DNA of 43,509 nucleotides from an uncultured Bacteroidales bacterium (GTDB taxonomy: Bacteria; Bacteroidota; Bacteroidia; Bacteroidales; WCHB1-69). Below the pieces are notes generated by a model. The model was not told where the DNA came from, made no database searches, and saw only the letters and a program-made list of their open reading frames with translations. Position 1 is the first letter of the stretch. Each line of letters starts with the position of its first letter. Where the stretch lies: contig CAJOKR010000002.1 of NCBI GenBank assembly GCA_905235135.1, positions 1 through 43,509 of the forward strand, written 5' to 3'. Shown in pieces: positions 11,914 to 33,045 of this stretch. Made by a program: the position numbers and the translations under genes.

Positions 11914-12824
11914 AATCGAGTAGGAGGTGAACACTAATCGGAGGTGTTCACCTCTTTTCGTGTTCACTTGTCCTCTCACACCACCGTACAAGCGGTTCCG
12001 CATACGGCGGTTCCTCAACTCGGCAGCGCGGATGCGCTGTAGTAACAACCTATCCAGCTATAGCCTGCCCTGCGGAGTGCCTCGTCGCCGATTGCTCGCG
12101 AGAGTATCCAGCTGTCGGCTATGCGCCAGTATCCCTTGCTCGTGTTGCCCCATTGGTAAGCCCGCCATCTGTTTATCCCACATCGGACGAGGTTCTCCAC
12201 TCTCGTTCGTGGCTTCTTCCACGCTTTCCAAATGCACATGCGCAGACGGCGGCGAAGCTTGGCTTCGCTCTTCTCATGCAAACGCAGTCGGCATTTGCCA
12301 TTGCACATGTAGAAGCCGTAACCAAGGAACTTCCACCCGCTGATGCGGTCGCATTCGGTCTTCTCGCGGTTGACCTTTAACTTCAATTCCTTTTCTATGT
12401 ACTTGGTGATGCTCCCCCTCACTCGCTCCGCAGCTCGGCGGCTCTTACAGAAGATAAGGCCGTCGTCCGCTGCATGGCGTATGTTCTCCATTAGTGCGGC
12501 CTTGTGCTCCAATAGAGAGCCGAGCAGCCGGTCGCCGCCGTGTCCGTGAGACCTCCCCGATTAAGGACACAATCTTTCACACTTATACCTGCTTGATTTA
12601 CGCTGCCCGTTCCGTATAGCTATGGGGCTTCGACTTCTTATGCAGTCTCACCCACGGGCTTGCGCCTTGGTATCAAGTTTCTGTCCGTCAGGCCAGTGCT
12701 TTGCCGCCGACTTCCTTCAGACCCAATGTCGCCATTGGCACCTTGTCTTTGGCTGTGCGCTTGCCGCTATAGGGCCGCGCTCGGGACTTTCACCCGTTAG
12801 ATTATGCCCATGTCGGACGAACAC
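11914..12824 (-). mobile_element. Internally deleted group II intron
   Basis: On the minus strand the 5' end is GTGTTCGTCC at 12824, followed by domain I hallmarks (GGGTGAAAGTCCCG, CCAAAGACAAGG, TCTGAAGGAAG, CTGACGGACAGAAAC). At the other end are a domain V-like hairpin (11980-12013), a domain VI-like hairpin with 11-bp arms (11924-11934 and 11944-11954) and a CTCGAT-type 3' end near 11914. The total of about 0.9 kb compares with about 1.8-2.5 kb for an intact element. Nearly all of the reverse-transcriptase fingers and palm are gone, so it cannot move by itself. It sits 5 bp past the terminator hairpin of the giant gene. Exact ends are by motif only. Confidence 0.8.
12015..12512 (-). pseudogene. 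Group II intron reverse transcriptase/maturase, C-terminal remnant
   Basis: About 165 codons remain of a protein normally of 400-600. The segment begins at the degraded active site (AADDGLIFCKS, where YADD is expected) and keeps the thumb and X/maturase region: WKFLGYGFYMCNGKCRLR, WKKPRTRVENLVRCGI, NTSKGYWRIADSWILSRA. The frame continues upstream of 12512 (about ten codons such as GDRLLGSLLEHK) with no resemblance to RT, so a deletion joined intron leader to the late ORF. There is no proper start codon. The RT is inactive; residual maturase-like function is possible but speculative. Confidence 0.85.
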
Positions 12825-18800: not shown

Positions 18801-21800
18801 GAGGGCGTATTGGATGCGGCTGCCGTCGGTGTTATAGACGGGCAGATGCTCGAAGGTGTAATCCCAAATGTCGCCGGTTCCGCTCAGCGTGATTTGTCGT
18901 ACCGAGTGGTCGCTGCCGTTGAGGGTGACGATGATAGAGTTCGGGCGTAAACCGTCCTGATTGCTGTTATCGGCCCAGGTCTTGGTCACCGGAATGTTGA
19001 TGAAGTCCTGCTTGATGGTGTTGGTGACGTGGTACCCGTCCACCACCGTATTGTAGCCTTCCAGTGCCTTCTCTTCGATAGTGTAGAGAAACGGTTCTCC
19101 GTCGTTGTGGTCAAGGACTACGCCGTCGGTGACAATGTCATATACGGGCAGATGGTTGAACGTATAGGACAGTTGGCCGTGGGAGAGGGTTGTGCTGTCG
19201 ATTTTCACACCGTCGCGCAGCAGCCGTATGAGGATGTCAGGATGGATGATGTCATCGGGATCGACCCAGCTCTTGCTCACTGTCACGGAAGTGTATTCTT
19301 GGACGGACTCCGGTGTTAACGCATTGGTCACGTCGTAGCCGTAAGGCATTGCGGTGAAGGAAGCCGTGTAGTTTGTCACGGGTCCCTCCGAAACGGTATA
19401 GACGATGGGCGTGAGGCCGAGTGTGTCGTTGAGGAAGGCCATGGGCAGTCCCGTGAAGGTGTGCCGCCAGTTCGTCGCTGGATCGGTGGTCGCGGTCAGC
19501 GTGGCACTGCTGACAGTCTCCGTGCCGTTGGCGATCAGGTGGGCGGTAATGCTTGCGGGTCGTTTGTTGAAAGTGTCGTCGTAATCGTCCCAAATCTTGC
19601 GCACCGTGAGCGTGGTGTCGGCGATGCGGGCATTGCGGAAGATGGGTACCTCGCCATAGCCATGGCGTAATTTGTGGGCGTTGGTTCCCGGTAACAGCTT
19701 GACAGTGTCTGTCACGGTCGCACCAAGATAGTAATCCGGGAAAGTCTCGCTGGTCTCGTTGAAGATGAACATGGTGACATTGCCGCCAGTGGTGTCCATC
19801 TTGACCGTGTATTCGCGGAAGTGTATCGTCGCGTCGTAGAAGGTCTCCACATTGCCGCTCTTCCGGCTCCAGATGCCGTTTCCAAGGTTTCCGGCTCCGG
19901 AGGGAATCACCTCGCTGATTTGGTAGTTGAAGACAACACCGGCAATCAGGGCCGAGTCGGTGAAATGTTCGCGCAGGTCGGTGTAGCTGAAGCGGAATCC
20001 GTCCTCGTCATTCTGGAAGAAACGGATGGAACTGTTGGTGTTGACCACGGTGAGGATGCGGTCGCCGTTGCTCTCGGTGACAGTGCCTGCGGGCATCGGG
20101 GCAATGTCGGCGTAGTCGCCCACAGCCTTGAGCTGGAAGGTGAAGTCGCCGCTTTCCAGACCGCCGGTGCCGATGTATGCCAGACTCTTGTCCGCCCTCG
20201 GATGGTAGTAGGTCACGGTGTTGTTATGGCTGTTGGTGATGGTGGGAACGCTCTCACGGCTGCCTCTCACTTCGCTGCCATCGACAACGGTGACGGGATA
20301 GTAGGCCACATCAGCAATCCGCAGGGAGTCGCCGTCCACGTCCACAACCCGGATATCTACAGCGTACCGCTGTGTAGAGTAGGAAATGCCGGGGATTCTC
20401 TCCATACCGCTTTCGGCGGGCGACAGCTCGCGGATGGTATAGGTGAAGGTGGTGTCGCTCTTGCCTTCCAGATCCTCTATGTGGAACGTGATGGGCGGGA
20501 AACTGTTCTGGCGGAGGTCGGCGGTGCCGGTTATATTGCTGGCATTAATAAGGGTCATGGCAAATGGAATCTCGTTGATGACTCCGGAAACGGCCGGCAT
20601 CGGGTTGGTGGTCGGGTGCGGAATGAGGGCAAGGGCGAAGGTGTCGGTGGTGAACCATTCGCGGCCCTGTAGCTGCTTGCGCACATCCAATGTCACGTCC
20701 ACTGGGGAGCGATGACGGTTGGTGATGGTGTCGATGTAGTTTGTGGCGGCGGTGAGCTGCCCGTTGTGGCCGTAGGTGGTGATGTAGCCTTCGGGGGCAT
20801 CCAACTCACGAACCACATACTGGACGGGCTCCCGGTTGTCAAATTTCGGCATTTTCCAACTTACGGTAGAATACTCTCCACCAATGCCGATCGTGGCCGT
20901 ATCGACGGAAGTCCACGCACCCGCATGGGCGTTGCGGTAGAGAACCACTTTCACGGGTTGGCGCAGGTGGTCGGCATCCTGGTTATCGTCCCAATGCTTG
21001 CAGATAGTCAGAACCACAGAGTCGGGCACGTGGGTGTTGGTGATCTTCAGCGTGGAAGCACTGGTCGTGGTGGAACCCAGCTCGCTGACGAAACTGTAGC
21101 CTTCCACATCGTCGCTCAAGCTGTAGTTGACCGCGCTGCCGTTCTGCTTCACCGGCCATTTGCCGAAAGTGCCGGTCCATTGGTTGTCCGTGCCGCTCAT
21201 GGTGCATGTGCCGACAGGATTTCCGTCGGCCAACAGAGTGACGGTAACTGTGGCGGGACGAACACCGTCGTTGTCGTGATGGTCAACCCAGATCTTCGTT
21301 ACATTGAGGATCAAGGAATCGGGTTCGTGACGGTTGATGATGTTCAGGGTGTAGGTGTCGTAGATGTCTGTGTTGAGAACATCGATGGCCGCAGGCGTGT
21401 AACGGTCCACAGGATCCTCGGTGAGCGAATAGAGGATTACTTCGCCCTGATTCTTGTGTTTGGGCAGATTGCCGAAGTCTGCGCTCCAGCCGTTCAGACT
21501 GGTCAGCGTGCGCGTGGCCACAGTGTTGCCGTCGGCGGTCAGCTGCACGGTGATCTGTTCGGGACGGATGCCGTCCTGGTTGTCGTTGTCGTCCCAGTGT
21601 TTTGCCACGGCGAGGCGAACGGAGTCGGGCGTATGCTTGTTGAAAAGTCTCAGCTTATAGACATTTTCCCGTACAAAGCTGTACTCCACGCCCGTCTCAC
21701 GGTAGCCGGCGGGTTCCTCTTCATAGAGAGAGTAAAAGATTTCGAAGCCGTCACGGTTAACGGGGAATTTGCCCAAAGAATCTGTCCAGCTGTTAGATTC

Positions 21801-24800
21801 GGAGAGCGTGGCGGTGGCCAACGTGATGCCGTCGGCGAGCAACTCGACATCAAGGCTTGCGGGACGGATGCCATCGATGTTGTTGTGGTCGCTCCAGACC
21901 TTCTCCACAAAGAGGATGATGGAGTCAGGCGTATGTGTGTTGGTGACAGTGTAGCCATCAACAATTTTCTCGTAAAGTCCGTTGAGATCAATGTTCAGAT
22001 AGTCAGGCTCGTCCAACGTGTATTGGATGCGGCTGCCGTCGGTGTGAAAAACAGGCAGGTGCTCAAAAGTGTAGCTCCAGCTGTTGCCGGTGCCGGACAA
22101 CACCTGCTCGCGCTCGCTGCCATCGCTGCCGGTGAGGATCAGCGTGACGGACGACGGGCGCACACCATCCTGGTTGTAAAAGTCGGCCCATACCTTCGTC
22201 GCGGGAATATCAATATACTCCTGTTCGATGGTGTTGGTGAAGTTGTTGCCGCTCTGCACGGAGGTGTAGCCCGCCACGGGCAGCTCCTTCACCGTGTAGA
22301 GGAACTGATGGCCGTTGTGGGCGATATCGTACATCGGCAGGTTGTCGAAGATGTAATCAGTGGCAGGACTTGTGATGGTTCGATAATCAACGGAGTCGCC
22401 GTCCATCATCAGCACGATGGTAACCGTAGGACGAGGCATGTCAGCCGGATCAATCCACGTCTTCGTGCCGGAAATGCTCGTGTAGTCCTGCTCGATGATG
22501 TTGGTAAAACGGTTGCCGCTCTGCATGGACGTGTAACCCGGCACCTCTCGCTCCACTATCGCATATTGATAGATATGTCCGTCAGTCAGGTCGTACTTGT
22601 TGAGGTTGTCGAAGCTGAAGTTCGTGGTGCCATGATGCACGGTGATGCTGTCGAACGGCTCCGCATCTCTGAGCAACACGATGTTGATGTCAGGATGAAC
22701 GGTTCTTGCCGGATCAATCCATTCCTTGGTGCCGGCGATGCTCGTGACCTCCTGCTTGATGGTGTTGGTGAAGTTGAAGCTGTTCTGTACAGAGTTGTAG
22801 CCTTCCACTGGCAGTTCTTTCACTGTGTAGGCAAAGCGATGACCGTCGCTGAGGTCGTATTTCGGCAGGTTGTTGAAGGCGTAGGTGAGGATGCCGTTTG
22901 GCAACGTGGCGGTGTCAATGGCCGCATTGTCGCGGTAGAGCACGATTTTGATGGCCGGGTGAGTGGAGCCTGCCGGGTCAATCCAGGTCTTGGTACCGGC
23001 GATGGCCGTGTCGCGCTGTGCGATGGTGTTGGTCACCACATAACCTGCTGCCATGCTGCCGCTGTAAGTGGTGGTGTAATTCTCCACAGTGACTTCCTGC
23101 ACGGAGTAGCTGATGGCATCGACGTTGAATGCGCTGTTCAGCTTGCCGGAAGGAAGGTTGGTGAAAGTGTGCGTCCAGTTGTTGGCCGCGCTGAGTACGG
23201 CGGTGGAGTCTGTGGGAATGCCGTTGGCAAGCAGACGCACGGTCACGCTGGCGGGACGGGTGCCGTAGGCGTTTTGGTTATCGACCCAATTCTTGCTGAC
23301 CGCCACTTCGGTGCGGGCGATGCGGGCGTTGAGGAAGATGGGCGAGCCTCCGAAACCGTGCCGCATGGTGTAGGCATCTGTGCCAGACGTAAGGAAGACG
23401 GTGTCCGTGGAACTGCTGGCCAAATAGTAGTCCTTGTGGATGTTCTCAACCCTCGTGACTCTCAGTTTGGCCTTGTTGCCGATGGTGTCCAAGATGACGG
23501 CAAGCCTGCGATAGTGGACGGTTGCGTCATAGACGGTCTCCACCCCGCCGGAAATCCGGCTCAATGTGCCATCGCCGTTGTTGGTGGCGTCATCAGGAAT
23601 GACTTCCCGCATAGTATATTCGAAGAAGATGCCGGACAGCAGTGCGGAGTCCGTGAAACCTTTCTGCCGCAAATCCATATAATCGAAACGGAGTCCGTCG
23701 TCATTGCCGTCGAAAAAGCGGATGGCATTGCCGACGTTGGTGGTAGTCAGAACGCGGTCGCCATTGGGCTCAGTGACGGTGTTCGCGGGCATCGGCGCCA
23801 CATCGGCATTCTCACCGACGGCTTTGAGTTGGAAAGTGAAATCACCGCTCTGCAAACTACTGGCATTGAACGTAATCAGGCGCTTGTCCGCTCTGGGGTG
23901 ATAAATGGTTACCGAATCATTGTATGTGTTCTCGAAGACGGGCAGCGCCACGCGGTCGCCTCTTTCCGAGATGCCGTTGGTGACGATGACGGGGAAGAAG
24001 GCTATATCGGTGATGGTCAAGGCATCGCTGCCATTGTCGCTGACGGTGATGTCCATGTCATAGCGCTGTCCCGAGTAGGTGATGCCGGGAATTCTGTCTG
24101 CTCCCGATTCTGCGGGGTTGAGCTCGCGAAGGGTGTAGGTGAAAGTCTTTTCGGAAAGTCCATTCAGGTCATCCATGCGGAAGACGATGGGCTCGTAGGT
24201 GTTTTGGCGTATCGCGTCGGAGATGAGGGTGTTGTCTTCGGCTATCTTCACGACGGCAAACGGGATGCCGCTGATGCTGATCGTGCCGGGCATCGGGTTG
24301 GACTCGTCGCGTGGAATCAGCGCGATGTCGAAAGTGTCAGTGGCAAACCAATTGCGGCCAGTCAGCTGCTTCTGGACACCCAGTGTTACCGCCACAGGCG
24401 AGCGGTGACGGTTGTTGACCGTCTCCGTATAGCCGTTGACCGCTGTCAGCAGACCGCCATTAGCGTAAGAGGTCACGTAATCTGCGATGGCCGTGATTTC
24501 CTTTACGGCGTAGCGGATAGTCTTGCCCGACAGGTATTTGGGAAGCTTCCAGTCGGTCGATGCGCCGCCATCGAGGTCGCTGACGGTAACCGTGTCAATG
24601 GCCGTCCAGCCTTCGTTGTCACTGTCGGGGCTGAAGGTGATGTCAGTCTCCGTGGTCTGGTAAAGGACTATTTGCACCGGTGTGCGCAGACCGTCGCTGT
24701 TGTTGTTGTCATCCCAGAACTTGCTGACTGTCAATGTGACAGAATCGGGTGCGTGACTGTTGGTGATGGTGAAGCCCTCCGTGAGGGTGGTGTAGCGGCT

Positions 24801-27800
24801 CTGGTTGGCGAAGCTGCTCTCCGCCACGGTGTAACGGATGCTGTCGCCGTTGTGGAACACCGGCAGGTTGCTGAATGTCCACGACTGCTCATTGTTCTGG
24901 TCGGTATTTCCGATAGTGATGGTACGATAGACGGAATCTGGAGCGGAGACGCGATGGCCAGTGAGGGTCAGCGTCAGCTCCGCAGGTCTGTAATGGTCGT
25001 TGTTGTTCTGGTCATCCCAAACTTTGCGGACAGTGACTTGCGTGAGGGCCGGCACGTGCGTGTTAGTCACCGTGAAACCATTGACCGCCTGCGTGTAACC
25101 TTCGCTAACGGTGGTTTCGCTGAGGCTGTAGTCGAGGATGCTGCCGTCAGCGAGGTCGTATTTGGGCAGATGGAGGTAGGTGGCCGACCAGTTGTTGGCG
25201 GCGTTCAGCGTGGTGTCCTTGGAAATCACCACGGCATTGGTGTTCGAGTCCACGCCTCTGAGATTCAGGGCGACTGCGGCAGGACGCTTGCCGTCTTGGT
25301 TGTTGGCATCATCCCAAACTTTGGAGACGGTGATTACCGTGTCCGCTTGCGCGATGCGGTTTTCAACAGCGAAACCGCTGGCCATGTCGCCGGAAGTGGC
25401 GGCGGTATAATTTGGCACGCTGATTTCTACAATATTATATATAATAGGTGTGGCGTTGAAGTTGGCATCCATTTCGTAGAGCGGCAGATTGCTGAAGGTG
25501 GTCGCCCAACCGTTAGCTTCGTTGAGCTCGGCTTCCTCCTTGACGGTGCCGTTGGCTTTAAGTTGGACGGTCACGGCTGCCGGACGGGTGTTGTAAGCGT
25601 TGTTATTGTCAACCCACGACTTCACGACGGGGATGGAGATGCGCGACAGACGGGCGTTATGGAAAACAGGCGCACCGCCTTCCGTATGGCGCAGAGCGAA
25701 CTGTTCCTGTGTCAGCGACTGCGGGGTGTTGTCGCTGCCAAGGTAGTAATCGTGGTGGATGTCGTTGTAGGTGCTGCGGATGTCCAAGATATGTTGGCCG
25801 CCCGTTTCCACGATCCTCACGGTATATTTGCGGTAATGGACGGTGCCATCGTAGTACAGGTCGGTGATCACGCCGTTGTTGGTTGACTGCTTGTAGTAGA
25901 TGCTGTTGCCGGTATTCACAGCGTCTGAGGGAATCACCTCGCGGATCTCGTACTCGAAATCAACACCGGCGGCCAACGCTTCGTCGCTGAAGTCGTTCTT
26001 CAGATCTAAATAGTCGAAGGAAAGACCGTCGTCGGCGAGTGCGGAGTTGTAGAAGTTTACGACGGAGCCGCTGTTGGTGACGGTCAGCGTGCCACCCATA
26101 GTGCCGGCGGGCATGGGGGCTTTCGCGGCGTTCGTGCCCACGGGCGTGAGTGTGAACGAGTAGGCACCGTCTGTGGGGGTGACGCTGCTGCCATCCACGT
26201 GAAGCACCTTCTCGGCGTGCAGATGATAGTTGGTCTTCATCTCGTTGTAACGGTTGGTGAAGAACGGGGTCTCGTCAGCCATGCCGTTGCTCCGGATGTA
26301 GGAGATCTGATCGACCTTCAAGGCGTCAGTGCCGATCGAGACTTTGACTCTTACCTGATAGACTTCGGTGGAGTAGGTGACACCGGTGATGCGGGCGATG
26401 CCGCTTTCCGCATTGGTAAGTTCGCGGATGGTGTAGATGAATGTGGAATCCTCCTTGCCCTCCAAATCCTTCACACCGATGGTGATGGGGGCGAAGTTGG
26501 CGGTGCGGAGGCTGCCAGTGACGGTCGATGCGGGAGTGATGATGGCGGAGGCGTAGGTTTGTCCGCTCGTCGTGGTGGCGGTGCTGGCCGGCATTGGGGC
26601 TTCGCTGGTCTGCGGGAAAAGGCCCATCTCGAAAGCATCGCCGGTCTGCCAGTCGCGGCCAGTCAGGTTTTTGCCTACGGTTAGCTGGAACTCCGTCCCA
26701 CCCTTGATGGTGTTGGTGATGGTCTCCGTGAGTGCCTCTCCCTCTGCAGTCAACAGTCCGCCGTTTGCGTAGGAGACGATGTAGCCGACGGGCGCTGAGA
26801 GCTCACGTACAGCGTAACGGATTTCCATCCCGTTGTCGTATTTGTCCATCCCGTTCCAGATGGCGGTGCCGCCCGTGATGCCGATGGTCTCGCTGCCCAC
26901 AAGCGTCCAGTCGCTGCTGATGTTCTCGGGGTTGAAGTCTGCCGTGGCGACAGTGGTCTTGTAGAGCTGCACCTGAACCGGCTTGCGGGAAACGGTGGCG
27001 TTGTCGTCGTCCCAGACTTTGGTAGCTGCCAAGTTGACGGTCTCGGGCACGTGCGTGTTGATGACATTACCTACGCTCACCTCCGTGGTGTAGTTCTCAA
27101 CCTCTTTTTCTGTGAAAGAATACACGATTTCCTGTCCGACTTCCCCATATTTGTATTTGGGCATGTCGGAGAATGTCCATGTCCAGTCTGTTCCTGTCAC
27201 GGTCACGGAATCTACCTTCTCACCGTCGGCCATCAGCCGGATGAGGATACTTCCCGGGCGTATGCCGTCCTGGTTGTCGGCATCGTCCCAGATCTTGCTG
27301 CCGGAAATGGACACGGTCGCCGGGGTGTGCGTGTTGGTGATAGTCGCAGTGCCGCCGTCGTATTGGTAGCTCGTGTTGAGGTACTTTCCGCTCACGAAGG
27401 CACCGCCCTCTTCCACGAAGCTGTTCAGCACGGTGCCGTTGGCATCCATCGCGTACTCTTTGACGATGTAACTGATGGGGGTGGTGGTGCCTGCATACTT
27501 CGGCAGGTCGGTGAACTGGTGCTGCCAACTGCCGCCTTTCAGCACGGCGGTCTTGCCGGTCGCTGTGCCGTCGGCGAAAAGCTGCACCATGACGCTGTCG
27601 GGACGGATGCCATCGCGGTTATTGTCGTCGTCCCAGACCTTGGTGACGGTCAGGTCGCGGGTTTCGGGCGTCAGCGCGTTGGTGACGGTGAAGGTGTTCA
27701 GCAACGGGTTGCCGTATGTGACGGTGTAGCTGCGTCCGCCGCCCACGGGGTACTGTCCGCCGCTCTCGCCGACTTCCACCACACGGTACTCGTACTCCAC

Positions 27801-29993
27801 GCCCTGCATACCGGAAGCATACACGTCAAGATCGGAGAAACGGTGGGTCCAGGAGTCGTTGCCCTCCGTGTGAGTCAGGGTGACGGCTGTTCCAACATTC
27901 GCCCATTCGGTGTCGGCGGTTTTGCGCTGGAGTTGCACCTGCACGCTTGCGGGACGCAGAGCGTCCTGGTCGTTCGCGTCATCCCAGACTTTGCTCACGG
28001 TGACCGTGGTCGTGCCCGGCACGTAATGGTTGGTGAAGATATGATCAGCGTTGTTGCCCGTCTTTTCGGTAACAAGGTCTCCGTCCGTGTGCGTGTAGTT
28101 GTTGACGTTGCTCTCGGTCACCTTATACTCAATGAGCTGTCCGTTCTCGTATTTCGGGAGACCGGACCAGGTCCATGTCCATCCCTCGTCGGTGGCGTTG
28201 TTGCCGCTCACCGTTTTGGTCTCAATTTCCGTGTTGTTCTTGTATAACGTATAAGTCAACTCGGCGGGACGCTGACCGTCCTGGTTGCTGTTGTCGTCCC
28301 AGTGCTTGATGGCGCTGATGTTCACAGTCTCGGGCGTGTAGGCGTTCGTGACGGTTACGGTGCCGTTGGGAGTCACCACGCGGTTCGTCGGGGCGTATGA
28401 GACAGAGTATTCGCCTCTAAGGCCGGCAATCTTTCCGCCACTCTCGCCAACTTCATAGACGGTATAGACGATAGGTTCGCCAACTTTGTTTGCACGGCAG
28501 GAGTCAAGGCCTGTCCATGTGTGTCTGTAGTTGTTGCCGCTGTTCAGGACGACGGGCTCGCCGTGTGCGTTGCCGTCAGCGTAGAGTTGCACGGAAATCG
28601 CCGGGCGCGCGCCGTCTTGGTTGTTCGCGTCATCCCACACTTTTTCCACGTTACACTGCACCTTCACAGGGTTGACGGTGTTGGTGATGGTGAAGGCGTT
28701 GCCGCTGTTCGTGATGGTTTTCGTGTAACCTGTGGGAACGTCCACCTCATCCACCCGATAGACCACGGCCTCCCCTACTTCGCCATCCTTGTTGGCGGGG
28801 AGATGACGCCAGGTGTAGGTCCAGCTGCCTTCGCCCAGTCGCTGCAGACCCGGAATCGTCCCGGCCCCGAATGAGTAGCTCTCAACTGGCTCGTCGTCAG
28901 CGTAGAGTTGCACCCAGATGTCGTTGGTTCGCTTGCCGTTGCGGTTCCCCTCGTCGTCCCACACTTTGCTGACGGCAACCTCGGTCTCGTTGCGCGGGTG
29001 GGTGTTGGTGACCACAAAGCCGTCGATCATGTTGCCAGTCACGGTTTTGGTGTAACCGTTGGGGATGATAGTCTCATCCACCTCATACAGGACCTCGTGG
29101 CCGTTGAGCACCTTGTCCAACCCGGACCACTCGTATTCCCATCCATCGTTGGCGGTCACCTGCACGGCATCGCCAACTGGGGTGCGGACGGAGACACCTT
29201 CGACGGTGGAAAGACGGTATAGCTGCATGACGACGCCGGCCGGGCGCATATTATCGACATTGTTCTGATCGTCCCATACTTTGTTCACTTTTACTTTGAC
29301 ATATTCGAGGTCGCGGCGGTTGGTGATCGTGTCAATCAGGACGTTCTGTCCTTCAAAATGTTTGCTGATAATGGGGTTGTCGTAGCTGACGACCTGTTTT
29401 TCCAAAACGGTGTAGCTGATTTCCTCGCCATTACTATATTTGTCGAGTCCGCTCCATTCCGTCTGCCAGTTGTTCCCGGCATTCAAAACGGTGGTGCGGA
29501 TGGTGTCGTTGCCCTTTTTCAGATAAACGGTGACGTTGCCGGGACGCAGGCCTGCGTAGTCGTTTTGGTCATCCCACTTCTTGACCACCTTGATGGCCAT
29601 CTTCTCAGGTGCGTGCGTGTTGGTCACGGTGTAAGTGTAGGTGCCGTCCACCAGTACGGAGGTGGTGTCGGTGGTATAGCCATTAACAGCCACTTCTGAA
29701 ATGGTATAATGGATGGGCGTGCTGCCGTTGAGGACTTCGAGGTTCTGCCACGAATGCTCCCAACTGTTGCCTTCGTTCAGGGTGCAGACATTTACGGAGT
29801 CGCCGTCAGCCAGCAGCTTCACCGTCACGCTTTCCGGGCGGATGCCGTCCTGGTTGTCGCCGTCATCCCACACCTTGGTCACCTTCACGCCAACCTGCGG
29901 CTTGGTGTCGCGAAGCGCGTATGTGGTGCAGCCCACGCCGCTCACCCACGTATAGTTCGCCCCCGTGGCATTCGCCTTCACCGTGAACGACGA
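12873..29993 (-). CDS. Giant Cna-B/FctA-repeat stalk with C-terminal FISUMP domain (continuation of the LRR gene past an amber codon)
   Basis: After the TAG at 29994-29996 the same frame stays open for about 5,700 codons. By eye there are 36 Cna-B-type repeats of about 90-105 residues. Each has an isopeptide-type pattern: Lys in K-x-W-x-D near the start, Glu in Y-T-V-x-E, and Asn in (V/I)-T-N-T-H. Five double modules of about 350 residues resemble streptococcal FctA/Spy0128 pilin domains (LTGRDW or LQGRDW, MALIP, FTYTIREL, SGVTRVPGVTY). The C-terminus (about 13400-12873) is a FISUMP domain (CWMAENLRK, RGICPSGWHLPT, YSVRCVKD). No LPxTG motif, membrane anchor or type IX sorting domain is visible. 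There is no signal peptide and no credible start after the TAG; a GTG at 29981 lies inside a beta domain. The gene therefore depends on readthrough or is a broken remnant of the gene upstream. Confidence 0.85.
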   Translation of the reverse strand, partial: SSFTVKANATGANYTWVSGVGCTTYALRDTKPQVGVKVTKVWDDGDNQDGIRPESVTVKLLADGDSVNVCTLNEGNSWEHSWQNLEVLNGSTPIHYTISEVAVNGYTTDTTSVLVDGTYTYTVTNTHAPEKMAIKVVKKWDDQNDYAGLRPGNVTVYLKKGNDTIRTTVLNAGNNWQTEWSGLDKYSNGEEISYTVLEKQVVSYDNPIISKHFEGQNVLIDTITNRRDLEYVKVKVNKVWDDQNNVDNMRPAGVVMQLYRLSTVEGVSVRTPVGDAVQVTANDGWEYEWSGLDKVLNGHEVLYEVDETIIPNGYTKTVTGNMIDGFVVTNTHPRNETEVAVSKVWDDEGNRNGKRTNDIWVQLYADDEPVESYSFGAGTIPGLQRLGEGSWTYTWRHLPANKDGEVGEAVVYRVDEVDVPTGYTKTITNSGNAFTITNTVNPVKVQCNVEKVWDDANNQDGARPAISVQLYADGNAHGEPVVLNSGNNYRHTWTGLDSCRANKVGEPIVYTVYEVGESGGKIAGLRGEYSVSYAPTNRVVTPNGTVTVTNAYTPETVNISAIKHWDDNSNQDGQRPAELTYTLYKNNTEIETKTVSGNNATDEGWTWTWSGLPKYENGQLIEYKVTESNVNNYTHTDGDLVTEKTGNNADHIFTNHYVPGTTTVTVSKVWDDANDQDALRPASVQVQLQRKTADTEWANVGTAVTLTHTEGNDSWTHRFSDLDVYASGMQGVEYEYRVVEVGESGGQYPVGGGRSYTVTYGNPLLNTFTVTNALTPETRDLTVTKVWDDDNNRDGIRPDSVMVQLFADGTATGKTAVLKGGSWQHQFTDLPKYAGTTTPISYIVKEYAMDANGTVLNSFVEEGGAFVSGKYLNTSYQYDGGTATITNTHTPATVSISGSKIWDDADNQDGIRPGSILIRLMADGEKVDSVTVTGTDWTWTFSDMPKYKYGEVGQEIVYSFTEKEVENYTTEVSVGNVINTHVPETVNLAATKVWDDDNATVSRKPVQVQLYKTTVATADFNPENISSDWTLVGSETIGITGGTAIWNGMDKYDNGMEIRYAVRELSAPVGYIVSYANGGLLTAEGEALTETITNTIKGGTEFQLTVGKNLTGRDWQTGDAFEMGLFPQTSEAPMPASTATTTSGQTYASAIITPASTVTGSLRTANFAPITIGVKDLEGKEDSTFIYTIRELTNAESGIARITGVTYSTEVYQVRVKVSIGTDALKVDQISYIRSNGMADETPFFTNRYNEMKTNYHLHAEKVLHVDGSSVTPTDGAYSFTLTPVGTNAAKAPMPAGTMGGTLTVTNSGSVVNFYNSALADDGLSFDYLDLKNDFSDEALAAGVDFEYEIREVIPSDAVNTGNSIYYKQSTNNGVITDLYYDGTVHYRKYTVRIVETGGQHILDIRSTYNDIHHDYYLGSDNTPQSLTQEQFALRHTEGGAPVFHNARLSRISIPVVKSWVDNNNAYNTRPAAVTVQLKANGTVKEEAELNEANGWATTFSNLPLYEMDANFNATPIIYNIVEISVPNYTAATSGDMASGFAVENRIAQADTVITVSKVWDDANNQDGKRPAAVALNLRGVDSNTNAVVISKDTTLNAANNWSATYLHLPKYDLADGSILDYSLSETTVSEGYTQAVNGFTVTNTHVPALTQVTVRKVWDDQNNNDHYRPAELTLTLTGHRVSAPDSVYRTITIGNTDQNNEQSWTFSNLPVFHNGDSIRYTVAESSFANQSRYTTLTEGFTITNSHAPDSVTLTVSKFWDDNNNSDGLRTPVQIVLYQTTETDITFSPDSDNEGWTAIDTVTVSDLDGGASTDWKLPKYLSGKTIRYAVKEITAIADYVTSYANGGLLTAVNGYTETVNNRHRSPVAVTLGVQKQLTGRNWFATDTFDIALIPRDESNPMPGTISISGIPFAVVKIAEDNTLISDAIRQNTYEPIVFRMDDLNGLSEKTFTYTLRELNPAESGADRIPGITYSGQRYDMDITVSDNGSDALTITDIAFFPVIVTNGISERGDRVALPVFENTYNDSVTIYHPRADKRLITFNASSLQSGDFTFQLKAVGENADVAPMPANTVTEPNGDRVLTTTNVGNAIRFFDGNDDGLRFDYMDLRQKGFTDSALLSGIFFEYTMREVIPDDATNNGDGTLSRISGGVETVYDATVHYRRLAVILDTIGNKAKLRVTRVENIHKDYYLASSSTDTVFLTSGTDAYTMRHGFGGSPIFLNARIARTEVAVSKNWVDNQNAYGTRPASVTVRLLANGIPTDSTAVLSAANNWTHTFTNLPSGKLNSAFNVDAISYSVQEVTVENYTTTYSGSMAAGYVVTNTIAQRDTAIAGTKTWIDPAGSTHPAIKIVLYRDNAAIDTATLPNGILTYAFNNLPKYDLSDGHRFAYTVKELPVEGYNSVQNSFNFTNTIKQEVTSIAGTKEWIDPARTVHPDINIVLLRDAEPFDSITVHHGTTNFSFDNLNKYDLTDGHIYQYAIVEREVPGYTSMQSGNRFTNIIEQDYTSISGTKTWIDPADMPRPTVTIVLMMDGDSVDYRTITSPATDYIFDNLPMYDIAHNGHQFLYTVKELPVAGYTSVQSGNNFTNTIEQEYIDIPATKVWADFYNQDGVRPSSVTLILTGSDGSEREQVLSGTGNSWSYTFEHLPVFHTDGSRIQYTLDEPDYLNIDLNGLYEKIVDGYTVTNTHTPDSIILFVEKVWSDHNNIDGIRPASLDVELLADGITLATATLSESNSWTDSLGKFPVNRDGFEIFYSLYEEEPAGYRETGVEYSFVRENVYKLRLFNKHTPDSVRLAVAKHWDDNDNQDGIRPEQITVQLTADGNTVATRTLTSLNGWSADFGNLPKHKNQGEVILYSLTEDPVDRYTPAAIDVLNTDIYDTYTLNIINRHEPDSLILNVTKIWVDHHDNDGVRPATVTVTLLADGNPVGTCTMSGTDNQWTGTFGKWPVKQNGSAVNYSLSDDVEGYSFVSELGSTTTSASTLKITNTHVPDSVVLTICKHWDDNQDADHLRQPVKVVLYRNAHAGAWTSVDTATIGIGGEYSTVSWKMPKFDNREPVQYVVRELDAPEGYITTYGHNGQLTAATNYIDTITNRHRSPVDVTLDVRKQLQGREWFTTDTFALALIPHPTTNPMPAVSGVINEIPFAMTLINASNITGTADLRQNSFPPITFHIEDLEGKSDTTFTYTIRELSPAESGMERIPGISYSTQRYAVDIRVVDVDGDSLRIADVAYYPVTVVDGSEVRGSRESVPTITNSHNNTVTYYHPRADKSLAYIGTGGLESGDFTFQLKAVGDYADIAPMPAGTVTESNGDRILTVVNTNSSIRFFQNDEDGFRFSYTDLREHFTDSALIAGVVFNYQISEVIPSGAGNLGNGIWSRKSGNVETFYDATIHFREYTVKMDTTGGNVTMFIFNETSETFPDYYLGATVTDTVKLLPGTNAHKLRHGYGEVPIFRNARIADTTLTVRKIWDDYDDTFNKRPASITAHLIANGTETVSSATLTATTDPATNWRHTFTGLPMAFLNDTLGLTPIVYTVSEGPVTNYTASFTAMPYGYDVTNALTPESVQEYTSVTVSKSWVDPDDIIHPDILIRLLRDGVKIDSTTLSHGQLSYTFNHLPVYDIVTDGVVLDHNDGEPFLYTIEEKALEGYNTVVDGYHVTNTIKQDFINIPVTKTWADNSNQDGLRPNSIIVTLNGSDHSVRQITLSGTGDIWDYTFEHLPVYNTDGSRIQYALDEPDALSSGLFDHYTKAIDNSTMTVTNSHTPDSLTLFVQKVWDDNNDVDGIRPGSLTVELRADNVAVATETLNTANSWKSSFGRLPVKSNGHAIDYTVVETEPSGYTQTSIEKTTVSEKVYNMIITNRHTPDSVHLAVTKQWDDNNNQDGIRPASVVVHLTADGSTVATRTLSQTQGWTADFGNLPKYRNHGQVIVYTLAETPAEGYVLAVADTLKTDTHSTYTLGLTNRHVPDSVTVNITKVWNDHHNNDGMRPESAVVTLLANDVAVDTRTVSAATGWIADFGKRPVNLNGATVNYSLRDNVAGYSYAVEETTSAEGEQNLLITNTHVPDSVTLTVYKHWDDDFNAGHLRTPVTMQLYSTTGENAFSTETVSEGWTAVGTPVTIGSLEDYANVTWKLPKYASTKVIRYAVREVSAPADYITTYANGGVLTDGQETITNRHRAPVSVSLDARKRLQGRDWFTTDTFAIVLQPKSPENAPLPESHGIISGLPFSMIQLTSNDDFLSNELRDDALQSITFTTADLAGAAEKTFTYSIRELLPSESGLPQTPGMTYSNSRFEAVVTIRDNRTDSLTASVEYYKIVDGGRQLMDVPSFTNRYSDSATVYPIRANKNLAHSNAEALQNGEFSFILKPVGENAAVAPMPANALGIGANRYYEAYNQGNDILFYDGADDGLRFDHTELRLAGFTDAALIEGVMFEYQMYEMIPDEAYNHNNGIRSLKVGGVETFYDAVVHHRNFNVKLDTAGGRARLNVIIGSDTIHNDYYVKDDNQKVFLTSSSPAYKLRHGFGGVPIFLNARVGDTTITVHKTWEDYDNVFNTRSASVTVNLIANGSSPVGTAVLEESNDWRHTFSDLPSASMNATFGLDPITYTVEETAVSHYVSHVNPMSGGFNIHNAIIPEEMQKDTAITVTKTWIDPAGTVHPDIKIYLRRDGLKVDSVVLTNGQLTHTFSNLPVFDLAIGGIPIEHNDAERFHYTIDEYPVAGYGTTIVDGHITNTIKQAKVEIAGTKVWVDPFGTDNMSRPDLRLSLHRDGALITTESFGQGATSWAFPNLDKYDLTDGHEYAYSVEEVQPEGYTSVISGNVITNTINQEYLNIPVSKVWSDNSNQDGIRPGSVKLTLSGSDGSSHEATLSGGNNVWSWTFTNLPKYAVDGQNIVYTLTEEDVAGYLSSVTGSASGGFTVTNTHTPATADLTAWKFWEDNNNAEGLRQPVTVQLYRTLHATADFNPSVVSGHWEPVGTPKTVSTAPAHVSTVWNDMPFYKDGQKYRYAVRETNVPEQYVVAYSNGGLLTAEKAYTDTITNHHYASVTAAIPVQKVLQGRDWLETDTFEMALIPKVVTDPMPANATTGGGIPYAPVLVTASDLPATDPTSRIDHFLPLTFTTDDMGGATEKTFLYNIRELTFSESGVTRVPGVTYGTERYEVQITVRVGTDNNLEIANVAYFEIFMHEGVEDHRVAAEIPSITNTFNSAKTIYHLVADKQLTVHGGTPLQSGEFHFKLRPVGALAAIAPMPSNTTGYGLNRTLTVSNEGNAIRFYDESIPDDGLVFDHESLLLAGITDAQLAVGVEFEYVLSEVIPDDAVNNDDCTWSRTVTISGGLMEDETYDALVHLRKIIVKLTEDAAHNSLLVVSGTSDDHHGEYYVKSTGDTVFILTGSEMHAQRHGTGGVPVFQNTRTARTSVEVRKVWDDWDNELGTRPDEITVVLLANGVETETVATLNSGNGWQYTFTNLPSTADGNEIVYTVQEVSVNHYESDYDGDMTVGFTITNTLSDYGIDEDCGIIVSSDQLSSCPDITCNPVTDEDGITYDVVKIDGYCWMAENLRKQTPGALSYQSAISSDASANVAHYGYLYTWNEAAGGTDNPVHVNGYVRGICPSGWHLPTTKEINVLRTNSAEFLKSTGDWVAPGFNTTGFNALPAGFYNSTLSRFEGLHTITYFHGDEYGEEFGITYHCCKLMIPEHESPGNGYSVRCVKDCE
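13780..14880 (-). repeat. FctA-like double module 5
   Basis: It opens with IPVQKVLQGRDWLETDTF. The second half begins near YHLVADKQLTVHGG and ends at GGVPVFQNTRTAR. One last Cna-B unit (WDDWDNELG) follows before the FISUMP domain. Confidence 0.78.
14880..16400 (-). repeat. Cna-B block E, 5 repeats
   Basis: Units WEDYDNVFN, WIDPAGTVH, WVDPFGTDN, WSDNSNQDG and WEDNNNAEG: a shortened version of the same order. Confidence 0.78.
16400..17465 (-). repeat. FctA-like double module 4
   Basis: It opens with LDARKRLQGRDWFTTDTF. The second half begins near YPIRANKNLAHSN and ends at GGVPIFLNARVGD. Confidence 0.78.
17465..19620 (-). repeat. Cna-B block D, about 7 repeats
   Basis: Units WDDYDDTFN, WVDPDDIIH, WADNSNQDG, WDDNNDVDG, WDDNNNQDG, WNDHHNNDG and WDDDFNAGH. 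The order mirrors block C, which indicates a segmental duplication. Confidence 0.78.
19620..20705 (-). repeat. FctA-like double module 3
   Basis: It opens with LDVRKQLQGREWFTTDTF. The second half begins near YHPRADKSLAYIG and ends at GEVPIFRNARIAD. Confidence 0.78.
20705..23310 (-). repeat. Cna-B block C, about 9 repeats
   Basis: It includes three shorter 'TWIDPA' units in a row, then units of WADFYNQDG, WSDHNNIDG, WDDNDNQDG, WVDHHDNDG and WDDNQDADH type. The last five appear in the same order in block D. Confidence 0.78.
23310..24400 (-). repeat. FctA-like double module 2
   Basis: It opens with LGVQKQLTGRNWFATDTF. The second half begins near YHPRADKRLITFNA and ends at GGSPIFLNARIAR. Confidence 0.78.
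24400..25650 (-). repeat. Cna-B block B, 4 repeats
   Basis: Units beginning PVVKSWVDNNNAYN, VSKVWDDANNQDGKRP, VRKVWDDQNNNDHYRP and VSKFWDDNNNSDGLR. Confidence 0.78.
25650..26700 (-). repeat. FctA-like double module 1
   Basis: It opens with VGKNLTGRDWQTGDAFEMGL. The second half starts near YHLHAEKVLHVDG and ends at GGAPVFHNARLSR. It is the most divergent of the five copies. Confidence 0.75.
26700..29900 (-). repeat. Cna-B block A, about 10 repeats
   Basis: Ten successive Cna-B-type units, from VGVKVTKVWDDGDNQDG to VNLAATKVWDDDN, about 320 bp each. Boundaries are approximate. Confidence 0.8.
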
Positions 29994-29996
29994 CTA
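29994..29996 (-). other. In-frame amber codon splitting the giant gene
   Basis: The codons read GAC CCG TCA ACG CCG TAG TCG TCG TTC ACG GTG. The TAG and the following 17.1 kb are in the same frame, and there is no stop on either side for thousands of codons. CAG to TAG would be one substitution. Confidence 0.9.
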
Positions 29997-32519
29997 CGGC
30001 GTTGACGGGTCGTAGCCCGTTGAAACCACAATGCTGTCCTCGACAACAGTAAGGCCTGTTTTGGATGCGAATTGTACGGAACCGAGGTCGTTGCCTTCTC
30101 CCAAAACAATACTTTCGCCGCCTTTTCCGTGGGTGACATGAGTGACCGGGAGACTGTCGTAGCAGGCGTCCAACGTGTCGTTATACCAGTCCTGCTCGTA
30201 TGGGACATCCAGGTCGTTGGCGTAGAAAATGAAGTGTTTGTCGGGATCTTCAGCGCCCACAATCTTGACCTCGAAATCAATCTTCACACCGAAACCGCCT
30301 GTGATGATCTGTACTCCATAGTTGTAGGATGGATAGCCAAGGTATGCATAGTTCATAAACTGGATGCCGTCACCTTCCTTGACTTGCAATAGGGTACGAT
30401 AGAATTTTTTGCCTCCACTCCAGTCATCATAATAGTGGTTACTCCATTCGTAATACTCATGGTCTCTATTATGATTTCTGGTAGGGAATTTCTCGAGCTC
30501 CGTATAGGTTATTTTGTTGATGATGACGGCTACGTTGTACCGTGTTCCATTAACATCAACGGCTGCACCCGAATAGGTGAACGTCAGCGGGTCTCCCGAC
30601 AAGTCGATAGTATAATTCCCGGAATCAGGCCATACGATATTGTCCGTGTTTACATACGTCACCCCGCTACTTTCATTCACAATCACCAGATCAGAGTGAT
30701 TCCCGCCGGTCTGCACGTAGGGGCTTTGCTGGAGGAATGCAATGCGATAAAACGTCTCGTCGGCTTCGATCTCTTCCTCCACCCACTCGTCGTCGAGGAT
30801 GGTGTAAACGCCGGGCGGCAGGTGGCCGGCGCCTCTTAGGTTGAGGTCGCCGTGGATGATGTTGATGTTGGTTCCTCTGTCGGCAATGTCAGCCGGTCCA
30901 TTGAGCAACGGGGTGTTCCCAGAAGTTCCGTCCCGGTCGGTGATGAGATCGACATAGTCCCTTTTGGTTTCGATGGTCACGGCAGGCCCGGCATCAGAAA
31001 CGAAGTCCATCTGTTTCTGGGCGAAATAGTAGATGTTCTGGTCGTAAGAGGAGTTGTAGTATTCGTTTCCGGGGGTTCCCGCATTGTTTTTGCACATCCA
31101 CACGTTGGAGTTCCGGGCCGACAGCGTCCGGAGACTGTCACAGGTTCTTAAGCCCAGGTCCCTACTGTAACCACACTTGTAGTCAGAGTAGTTGTAGTAG
31201 TCCCAGCATTCGCGGTCCCACCCCGTGATTCTCGTGACATTGTTGTCGGTAATACTGTTGTCTTCAAGTGGATTATGATCGGAATACTTCGTGGGCCCGA
31301 TATGTGTGTTGTCCAAATTGTCCATGTTGAGATATTTGAGTCTGGTGCAGCCTTCGACAAAATAGCCCATGTTGTAAATCATCCCCAAGGTTCCGAAACT
31401 CGACACGTCCAGGCTTTCAAGACTGGTGCAGTTCTTGAACATAGAAGTCATAAACATCGCTTCGGACACATCAATGCCGTCCATCTCGACCGTCTTAAGG
31501 TTGGCGCATCCCTCAAACATGGAGATAAAGTCGATAACATTGATAAACTTGGTGTTGTTGAGATAGACCTCTTCCAAGGCAGAATGGTTTCTGAACAGTT
31601 CCCGCGCCTGCTTCCAGTCGTTCCAGTCGTCGCCTCCACTGCGCCCGTAGATGGTGATGTTGGACATATCCACTTTCTTGAGTTTGTTGCAGCCGTCAAA
31701 AATATGCTGCATCATCACACCGCCTGCCCTTGCCCCGTTGTTGGTGGAATAGGCATAGGTATCGGGATTAAATTTATTGTTGAAATCTGAACTCGCCCTC
31801 GTTATGAATCCCGGGTTGTTGAGGATGACCTCCTCCAACGCGGTGCAGCCGCTGAACATATACGTCATATTCCACACTGTCCCGTTGCTTGTCATGGCGC
31901 TGAGGTCAATCTCTTTCAGGCTAATGCAGTTTTGGAACATCGCCTGGAGATTTGCATCTTTTACGATGTTAAAACCGCCATTGCCAAACTTCACGGTTGT
32001 CAGTCTGGTGCAGTTTTCGAACATACTTCTGACATTCCCGACATTCACAACGGCATCCCCGAAATCAATTTCCTCGAGGTTCGTGAAATCCTTGAACATG
32101 TAGGCAATGTCCTTCTCGTTAAAGTTGAAATCGGCATTGTTGTTGTTCTTCACAAAAATGACTTCTTTGACTTGCGGACGAATGTCTGAACCGTTGGGGC
32201 CTGTGAGCCACACATTGTTCCAGTCCGTTGTACTATTCAAATTGTAATTTTTAGTCAAACCGCCGGTCGTGGTGTTGTTTTTCAAACGAATCCTCAAGAC
32301 ACCGGCATCGTCTAACCAAAAATACCAACTGTTATCAATTGTCCTTTGTGCAATGAGGGCCTTTGTGCCGTTAACATCTTTCACCCCCGGGTTGGTAGTG
32401 GTGGTTTTCGGGGATTTCTTGCTTACGTCTATTGGGTTTCCAAAGACTGGTTGCAAACCACCGAAAAGGGTGAGTCCTATAATGCTTGTGATGAGTAGTG
32501 CGTAAATCTTTTTGCTCAT
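29994..32519 (-). CDS. BspA/DUF285-type leucine-rich-repeat surface protein, N-terminal part of the giant gene
   Basis: There are 841 codons from the ATG at 32519, chosen because it begins the signal peptide (MSKKIYALLITSIIGLTLFG...QPVFG). The in-frame TTG at 32585 adds 22 unlikely residues and overlaps the promoter region. Leucine-rich repeats of BspA type fill about residues 95-370, with units of the form MF-x-x-C-x-x-L-x-x-(V/I/L)-D/N (MFENCTRLTTVKF, MFSGCTALEEVIL, MFKNCTSLESLDV). Beta-rich domains follow (VYTILDDEWVEEEI, FGVKIDFEVKIVG, FYANDLDVPYEQDWY). The frame ends in TAG in the middle of a probable beta domain, and the next codons (SSFTVKANATGANYTW) look like its next strands. BspA-type LRRs occur in adhesins that bind host matrix. 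Alone it would be a secreted protein with no anchor. Confidence 0.85.
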   Translation of the reverse strand: MSKKIYALLITSIIGLTLFGGLQPVFGNPIDVSKKSPKTTTTNPGVKDVNGTKALIAQRTIDNSWYFWLDDAGVLRIRLKNNTTTGGLTKNYNLNSTTDWNNVWLTGPNGSDIRPQVKEVIFVKNNNNADFNFNEKDIAYMFKDFTNLEEIDFGDAVVNVGNVRSMFENCTRLTTVKFGNGGFNIVKDANLQAMFQNCISLKEIDLSAMTSNGTVWNMTYMFSGCTALEEVILNNPGFITRASSDFNNKFNPDTYAYSTNNGARAGGVMMQHIFDGCNKLKKVDMSNITIYGRSGGDDWNDWKQARELFRNHSALEEVYLNNTKFINVIDFISMFEGCANLKTVEMDGIDVSEAMFMTSMFKNCTSLESLDVSSFGTLGMIYNMGYFVEGCTRLKYLNMDNLDNTHIGPTKYSDHNPLEDNSITDNNVTRITGWDRECWDYYNYSDYKCGYSRDLGLRTCDSLRTLSARNSNVWMCKNNAGTPGNEYYNSSYDQNIYYFAQKQMDFVSDAGPAVTIETKRDYVDLITDRDGTSGNTPLLNGPADIADRGTNINIIHGDLNLRGAGHLPPGVYTILDDEWVEEEIEADETFYRIAFLQQSPYVQTGGNHSDLVIVNESSGVTYVNTDNIVWPDSGNYTIDLSGDPLTFTYSGAAVDVNGTRYNVAVIINKITYTELEKFPTRNHNRDHEYYEWSNHYYDDWSGGKKFYRTLLQVKEGDGIQFMNYAYLGYPSYNYGVQIITGGFGVKIDFEVKIVGAEDPDKHFIFYANDLDVPYEQDWYNDTLDACYDSLPVTHVTHGKGGESIVLGEGNDLGSVQFASKTGLTVVEDSIVVSTGYDPSTP

Positions 32520-32969: not shown

Positions 32970-32970
32970 G

Positions 32971-33045
32971 TGGGACGTACTGGACTCGAACCAGTGACCT
33001 CTGCCGTGTGAAGGCAGCGCTCTGAACCGACTGGGCTAACGTCCC
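32971..33045 (-). tRNA. tRNA-Val, anticodon CAC
   Basis: Read on the minus strand, all four arms fold: acceptor GGGACGT/ACGTCCC, anticodon stem CTGCC/GGCAG with loop TTCACAC (anticodon CAC, decoding GUG), and T arm ACTGG-TTCGAGT-CCAGT. The D stem GCCC/GAGC has one mismatch. There are 75 nt including the discriminator A. CCA is not encoded and must be added after transcription. Confidence 0.93.

What the first reader, a model, noticed from the sequence alone, without database searches (positions are those of the whole stretch)
29979..30010. A single amber codon splits a ~19.6-kb surface-protein gene into an LRR part and a giant stalk part
The LRR frame ends in TAG, and the next 5,700 codons lie in exactly the same frame with no other stop. 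The sequence around the TAG (GYDPSTP, then SSFTVKANATGANYTW) looks like consecutive strands of one domain, so the ancestral gene was most likely continuous. After the TAG there is no signal peptide and no credible start. Genome-wide reassignment of TAG is excluded, because at least six other genes here end in TAG (stops at 613, 2966, 4624, 6448, 8822 and 12873). What remains is programmed or leaky readthrough, an amber suppressor tRNA, a fresh nonsense mutation, or a base-call error. Readthrough would make most product a short soluble LRR protein and a minority a very long stalk.
Basis: partly seen in the sequence, partly recalled or inferred. Interest (0 to 1): 0.9.

Follow-up and report, generated by a model that had tools for sequence, protein, structure and literature searches.

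The report
Stop codon inside giant surface-protein gene
A very long bacterial surface-protein gene is cut in two by one stop codon, and the evidence points to an error in this draft genome or a fresh disabling mutation rather than to a special way of reading the gene.

Summary
TAG at 29994-29996 (minus strand) separates an 841-aa LRR frame from a 5,706-codon stalk in the same frame with no other stop.

Functional readthrough has no support. None of 44 tRNA matches has a CUA anticodon, TAG ends 77 of 296 coding frames sampled, there is no unusual downstream RNA fold, and the one relative with the junction lacks the stop. A tempting lead, RF1 (prfA) frameshifted at its GGQ motif, ended when valS, dnaG, gcvP and fucP proved broken in the same assembly; cells do not live without the first two. 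A second genus member, G011, has in-frame stops of two kinds in prfA (TAG) and hisS (TAA). These drafts therefore carry base-level errors. I judge the amber most likely such an error (about 0.52) or a recent nonsense mutation (about 0.40). Reads would settle it. In passing: different heads on related Cna_B stalks within one genus, and a head shared across phyla.

The parts
29994..29996 (-). in-frame amber codon (TAG) that splits the gene
   Evidence: the clearest coding-to-coding in-frame stop of the 13 listed (next ATG 131 codons on)
29997..32519 (-). 841-aa head: signal-like N-terminus (by eye), BspA-type/DUF285 leucine-rich repeats, linker, first part of a C-terminal head region
   Evidence: PF13306 1.1e-11, PF03382 1.7e-10; blastp to L125 32.9% over 761 aa, E 2e-85
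29880..30560 (-). head C-terminal region that the amber interrupts; continuous in L125
   Evidence: 46% identity to L125; no Pfam match to the 188 aa before or the 38 aa after the stop; structure job uninformative
12873..29993 (-). 5,706-codon stalk frame: 36 Cna_B and 5 FctA/Spy0128-like stretches, FISUMP domain at the C-terminus
   Evidence: 35 Cna_B in the genome search; 36 of 36 K/R-x-W-x-D motifs carry K
12876..13400 (-). C-terminal FISUMP (Fib_succ_major) domain, 62-63% identical to same-genus giant stalk proteins
32970..33045 (-). tRNA-Val (CAC) upstream of the gene; ordinary, not a suppressor

Best explanation
The locus is one gene for a giant, probably secreted surface protein (LRR head, about 36 Cna_B plus FctA-like stalk domains, FISUMP end). 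The amber is most likely a wrong base in the consensus of a draft assembly, so the split is not a biological feature. Shown: the head region is continuous in a relative; the stalk frame is intact; the same assembly breaks genes that a living cell must have. Inferred: that the error source behind those breaks, mostly frameshifts, also produced this substitution.
For: L125 reads through the site with a sense codon in a 4,395-codon frame. Five same-genus giant stalk N-termini are single open frames that start with a signal-like sequence; two are complete genes (G017, G037), three run unbroken to a contig end. In the same assembly prfA is split 4-234|235-343 in two frames, while 34 of 40 genus genomes pass the prfA cut-off and the 12 relatives' loci inspected are in frame there. 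valS is split 2-565|567-860, gcvP 450-635|635-938, fucP 1-154|153-408, dnaG 2-209|209-300, and a FISUMP gene 1-69|71-187 by an in-frame TGA. Four of these lie in a 400 kb sample not chosen for breaks; 400 kb of relative G014 gave none verified. At that rate a 19.6-kb gene would carry 0.2 breaks. Draft G011 of the same genus shows that in-frame stops also turn up in genes a cell needs: hisS is split 2-312|324-405 by TAA and prfA carries a TAG. Contigs C88 and C107 break inside prfA with an exact 87-base overlap, as k-mer assemblers leave (recalled).
Against: Only one of the four verified breaks in the G000 sample is an in-frame stop; at that rate 0.05 such stops are expected in this gene. The reciprocal orthologue test shows only a mild excess over G014: 3 frameshifts in 85 orthologue-like genes against 1 in 85; of the stops (2 against 1), the two in G000 lie within about 12 residues of an alignment end and may be trivial. 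The 19.6-kb gene has no other in-frame stop. No reads were available. The other in-frame stop in G000 also lies in a surface-protein gene, which would fit real, tolerated inactivation.
Confidence: 0.52

Rival explanations
1. A real, recent nonsense mutation in this strain. The cell makes only the LRR head without its stalk; the stalk is not translated and will decay.
For: The stop is a plain TAG with no sign of recoding. Large surface genes tolerate loss (general knowledge). A second FISUMP surface gene carries an in-frame TGA. The untouched stalk fits a young event: 3.1% of single substitutions in it are nonsense, so about 96 neutral substitutions (0.56%) would give a 95% chance of a second stop.
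Against: The assembly demonstrably carries base-level errors in genes that cannot be lost. No second lesion is present.
Confidence: 0.4
2. Programmed or leaky UAG readthrough that makes mostly short head and a little full-length protein.
For: The frame stays open beyond the stop over 5,706 codons, and the conserved head region continues after it.
Against: The only relative found with the junction has a sense codon. The 114 nt after the stop fold no better than shuffles (z 0.26). The base after TAG is T, recalled as an efficient termination context. The stop falls inside a conserved region, so the short product would probably be misfolded.
Confidence: 0.03
3. RF1 is really inactive in this strain, so UAG codons including this one are read by near-cognate tRNAs.
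For: prfA is frameshifted just before GGQ in this genome, and another genus member, G011, has an in-frame TAG inside prfA: 2 of 40 genus genomes with a prfA lesion.
Against: valS and dnaG are broken in the same way in G000, and hisS is broken by TAA, not TAG, in G011, which no cell survives. TAG ends 77 of 296 coding frames in G000 and 59 of 188 in G011. In the filtered scan of 454 kb of G000, no other gene is interrupted by TAG without an ATG close behind.
Confidence: 0.03
4. An amber suppressor or pyrrolysine tRNA decodes the codon.
For: None positive; the genome is only 88% complete.
Against: 44 tRNA matches, none with CUA; no PylS at E 1e-3.
Confidence: 0.01

Closest known systems
BspA-type LRR / DUF285 surface proteins with Cna_B-like stalks in Bacillota (here L125, JAGAXF010000006.1)
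   Same: LRR head, same linker and head C-terminal region; homologous through the amber site
   Different: L125 is continuous; its later part is only distantly similar to the window stalk (26-29%); the window gene ends in FISUMP
Same-genus giant Cna_B/FISUMP proteins (G017, G037, G003; L104-L109)
   Same: Cna_B stalk domains, stalk similarity 30-47% and, where the end is held (3 records), a FISUMP end 62-63% identical
   Different: single open frame; heads carry Flg_new repeats (3 of 5) or no Pfam match at E 1e-5 (2 of 5), not LRR
Spurious pseudogenes from assembly error (Cooley and Wright 2024, PMC11017572; abstract and one results section read)
   Same: internal stops and frameshifts in otherwise intact genes of an assembly; the paper ties internal-stop counts to assembly error
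   Different: the paper reassembled reads; none were available here

Membership tests
Programmed stop-codon readthrough gene | stop codon conserved among relatives with an open frame behind it | tested here: not met
   the one relative with the junction has a sense codon; no other genome matched among 393 in the order and 395 in the phylum samples, so this rests on one relative
Programmed stop-codon readthrough gene | stimulatory downstream RNA structure or context | tested here: not met
   fold z-score 0.26; TAG followed by T
Amber-recoded genome | tRNA with CUA anticodon | tested here: not met
   0 of 44 tRNA matches; genome 88% complete
Amber-recoded genome | TAG no longer used as stop | tested here: not met
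   77 of 296 coding frames end in TAG; relatives G014 40 of 232, G011 59 of 188
Amber-recoded genome | RF1 lost or altered | tested here: inconclusive
   prfA frameshifted in G000 and with a TAG in G011, but valS and dnaG (G000) and hisS (G011) are broken too
Decaying pseudogene | further stops or frameshifts | tested here: not met
   no other in-frame stop in 19.6 kb; a fresh lesion stays possible
Assembly-error pseudogene | essential genes broken in the same assembly | tested here: met
   prfA, valS, dnaG
Assembly-error pseudogene | reads disagree with the consensus | not testable with these tools
   no reads held
BspA-LRR/Cna_B giant surface protein | LRR (PF13306/PF03382) and Cna_B/FctA domains | tested here: met
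BspA-LRR/Cna_B giant surface protein | signal-like start and stalk in one open frame | tested here: not met
   amber between them in this assembly; one open frame in the 5 same-genus N-termini examined (3 of them cut by a contig end) and in L125

The most novel reading that the evidence does not exclude
RF1 is really failing in this genus (frameshifted prfA in this genome, an in-frame TAG in prfA of G011), and amber codons such as this one are decoded by near-cognate tRNAs: bacteria caught at the start of amber reassignment.
Probability: 0.03. Interest if true: 0.85.

Novelty: not a real feature. Interest (0 to 1): 0.18.

Why it matters
It shows how a draft assembly can imitate recoding twice over: an amber in a giant gene and a frameshifted RF1 in the same genome look like a linked story until other essential genes are checked. 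The gene itself, if continuous, would encode a protein of about 6,550 residues with a head shared across phyla and a stalk shared within a genus, which is useful for study of modular gut adhesins.

Tried and rejected
Suppressor tRNA and pyrrolysine: no CUA among 44 tRNA matches, no PylS. One match (C46:12939-13004) is not called by ARAGORN; its loop, read by eye, is not CUA. RF1 loss as the cause: attractive, set aside when valS (same contig), dnaG, gcvP and fucP proved broken too. While checking this report I noticed that one search lists one TAG inside the prfA match of G011; searches confirm it, and a G011 sample (243 kb) shows hisS split by TAA. This pulls both ways; I raised the RF1 reading from 0.02 to 0.03 and left the other odds. 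Independent stalk gene with its own start: no TAnnTTTG element nearby, next ATG 131 codons in, and relatives carry the signal-like start in the same frame. Downstream RNA structure: none. Chimeric join at the amber: unlikely, since homology to L125 crosses it and ends about 36 aa later.

Led nowhere: LRR frame in genome contigs (no relative), in 40 genus genomes (only LRR-repeat hits in G014), head C-terminal piece in 104 family genomes (none) and 393 order genomes (23 other genomes with weak hits, best E 0.014); stalk start in viral contigs and the junction pattern there, none; phages, none; plasmids, 53 records, the 20 listed matching between residues 105 and 478 only, none covering 80%. Structure of the head region, modelled on L125: mean pLDDT 33.5, uninformative. 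Papers: (no paper with both FISUMP and Bacteroid), 86: listings only, except PMC11017572 (abstract and section 10).

Limits of the error survey: of 6 frameshift-like places in the first 400 kb of G000, 3 were verified by profiles on both sides (gcvP, fucP, dnaG), manA on one side only, and 2 (L154:15409, L161:14934) were not scanned. Of 12 in-frame-stop places, 1 was verified (L155:6830, spotted by eye although an ATG follows), 1 was shown to be an ordinary gene boundary (L144:18339), and 10 have an ATG within 11 codons and were not scanned. The cruder scan also listed TAG at L144:14232 (ATG 23 codons on) and at window 29220 plus strand (antisense to the stalk); neither passed the filter. In G014, 2 frameshift-like places: the downstream ORF of one is a near-complete lolCE, so I read it as an ordinary boundary; the other was not scanned; its 24 in-frame-stop places all have an ATG within 13 codons, look ordinary by eye and were not scanned. 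In G011, of 19 in-frame-stop places (18 in the sample, and prfA in L225), hisS was verified, prfA confirmed, one shown ordinary (L240:940), the rest not scanned. The three G000 frameshifts (L145:841, L197:13829, L199:5251) were not checked by profiles. The first ORF comparison was swamped by antisense frames and replaced. The second 400 kb samples were used only and, as query genes, 109.

Full report
What is there. On the minus strand, ATG 32519 opens an 841-aa frame with a signal-like N-terminus (by eye) and BspA-type/DUF285 leucine-rich repeats. It ends in TAG at 29996..29994. The same frame then runs 5,706 codons to TAG at 12873 with no other stop, where composition would give about 98. This stalk holds 36 Cna_B stretches (35 in the genome search), 5 FctA/Spy0128-like stretches and a C-terminal FISUMP domain. 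All 36 K/R-x-W-x-D motifs carry lysine, as expected for isopeptide-forming domains (the role of that lysine is recalled, not tested). The window is the whole of contig C2 of a 3.26-Mb, 118-contig genome, 88% complete and 4.8% contaminated.

Was the gene continuous? Yes, on direct evidence. A scan of genome contigs with the 130 aa behind the stop found 16 loci, and one of them, L125 (a Bacillota MAG from water deer omasum), aligns with 64% identity to residues 1-36 after the stop. L125 is one frame of 4,395 codons. It matches the window's LRR frame at 32.9% over 761 aa (E 2e-85) and continues through the amber position with a sense codon. The amber therefore lies inside the last conserved region of the head, about 35 codons before the first Cna_B domain. 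In the family, Cna_B domains occur in 4 of 104 genomes, all of this genus. The five N-termini of giant stalk proteins held from G003, G017 and G037 are each a single open frame that starts with a signal-like sequence; two are complete and three run unbroken to a contig end. Their FISUMP ends, where held (three records), are 62-63% identical to the window's. Their heads are different: Flg_new repeats in three, no Pfam match in two. The LRR head region was found in no other genome of 393 in the order and 395 in the phylum samples. A head exchanged across phyla on a genus-level stalk is the simplest reading (inference).

Could the cell read through the stop? The evidence is against it. None of 44 tRNA matches has a CUA anticodon, and no PylS was found; both statements are limited by 88% completeness. 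TAG ends 77 of 296 coding frames of at least 100 codons in the sampled sequence, so it is an ordinary stop. The 114 nt after the stop fold like shuffled sequence (z 0.26). The one relative with the junction does not keep the stop. In the filtered scan of 454 kb, the window's amber is the only TAG with coding signal on both sides and no ATG close behind; a cruder scan listed two more TAG places that failed the filter.

A tempting lead and its end. The genome's prfA (RF1) is split into two frames just before the GGQ motif. Among 40 genus genomes, 34 have prfA over the family cut-off, and the 12 inspected are all in frame at this point; below the cut-off are G000 and five others with a partial prfA or with only an RF2-level match. 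A broken RF1 plus an amber in a giant gene would suggest amber suppression. But valS on the same contig is split the same way, and in a sample not chosen for breaks dnaG, gcvP and fucP are split too, verified by profile matches to both halves; manA is supported on one side only. A FISUMP surface gene is split by an in-frame TGA. Cells do not live without valS and dnaG (established knowledge), so these breaks are most likely errors of the assembly. In 400 kb of relative G014 I verified none. A reciprocal comparison of 85 orthologue-like genes each way gave 3 frameshifts in G000 against 1 in G014, a mild excess only; the stops it listed (2 against 1) lie near alignment ends or between neighbouring genes. 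That errors of this kind create false pseudogenes with internal stops is documented (PMC11017572, abstract and section 10).

A second genus member. On rechecking, G011's prfA, over the cut-off, proved to hold one in-frame TAG, with the rest of the protein intact. So 2 of 40 genus genomes show a prfA lesion, which by itself favours the RF1 reading. But in 243 kb of G011, hisS is split by an in-frame TAA (profile 2-312 and 324-405), TAG ends 59 of 188 coding frames, and no frameshift was seen among 29 and 30 orthologue-like genes. In-frame stops of mixed kinds in genes a cell needs again look like draft errors, and they suggest that substitutions of this kind do occur in such assemblies.

Weighing. 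Four breaks verified on both sides per 400 kb predict 0.2 in a 19.6-kb gene, but only one was an in-frame stop, which predicts 0.05. A real nonsense mutation in a large dispensable surface gene is therefore nearly as likely as an error. If real, it is young: 3.1% of single substitutions in the stalk are nonsense, so beyond roughly 0.56% neutral divergence a second stop would be expected. Either way the split is a lesion, not a device. I put error at 0.52, real mutation at 0.40, readthrough at 0.03, RF1 loss at 0.03 and a suppressor tRNA at 0.01. Reads at one codon would decide. The attempt to show the interrupted region as one fold failed (mean pLDDT 33.5), so its continuity rests on sequence alone.

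Noticed in passing
L142:108-1129 (G000:C88:9807-10828) and L141 start: prfA (RF1) in two frames with the switch just before GGQ; contigs C88 and C107 break inside the gene with an exact 87-base overlap.
   Followed up: yes
L225 (G011:C133, minus strand, near 19849) and L238:2002-3372: Same-genus genome G011: prfA holds one in-frame TAG, and hisS is split by an in-frame TAA.
   Followed up: partly
L143:1011-3645, L156:15989-16992, L145:18540-19998, L155:13263-14653: valS, dnaG, gcvP and fucP of G000 are each split over two frames, which points to base-level errors in this assembly.
   Followed up: yes
L155:6830: A 1,089-codon FN3/FISUMP surface-protein frame ends in TGA inside the FISUMP domain and continues in frame for 127 codons: a second in-frame stop in a large surface gene.
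   Followed up: partly
window 11915-12738, minus strand: Group II intron parts (D1-D4 at 12566-12738 and a 3' match at 11915-12012) directly behind the giant gene's stop; too little space between them for a full reverse transcriptase, so the internal ORF looks truncated.
   Followed up: partly
L104-L109: Same-genus giant stalk proteins carry different heads on related Cna_B stalks with a shared FISUMP end, as if heads were swapped.
   Followed up: partly
L125:6527-10126: A ruminant-gut Bacillota MAG shares the LRR head with this Bacteroidota-like genome, while samples of 393 order and 395 phylum genomes (partly overlapping) showed it only in G000: a likely transfer between phyla.
   Followed up: partly
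G000:C46:12939-13004 (L036:101-166): A tRNA-like sequence scored by Rfam but not called by ARAGORN, beside a tRNA-Leu; possibly a degenerate tRNA.
   Followed up: partly
window 20712-25886, plus strand: A 1,724-aa open frame antisense to the stalk, probably a by-product of its G+C-rich third codon positions.
   Followed up: no
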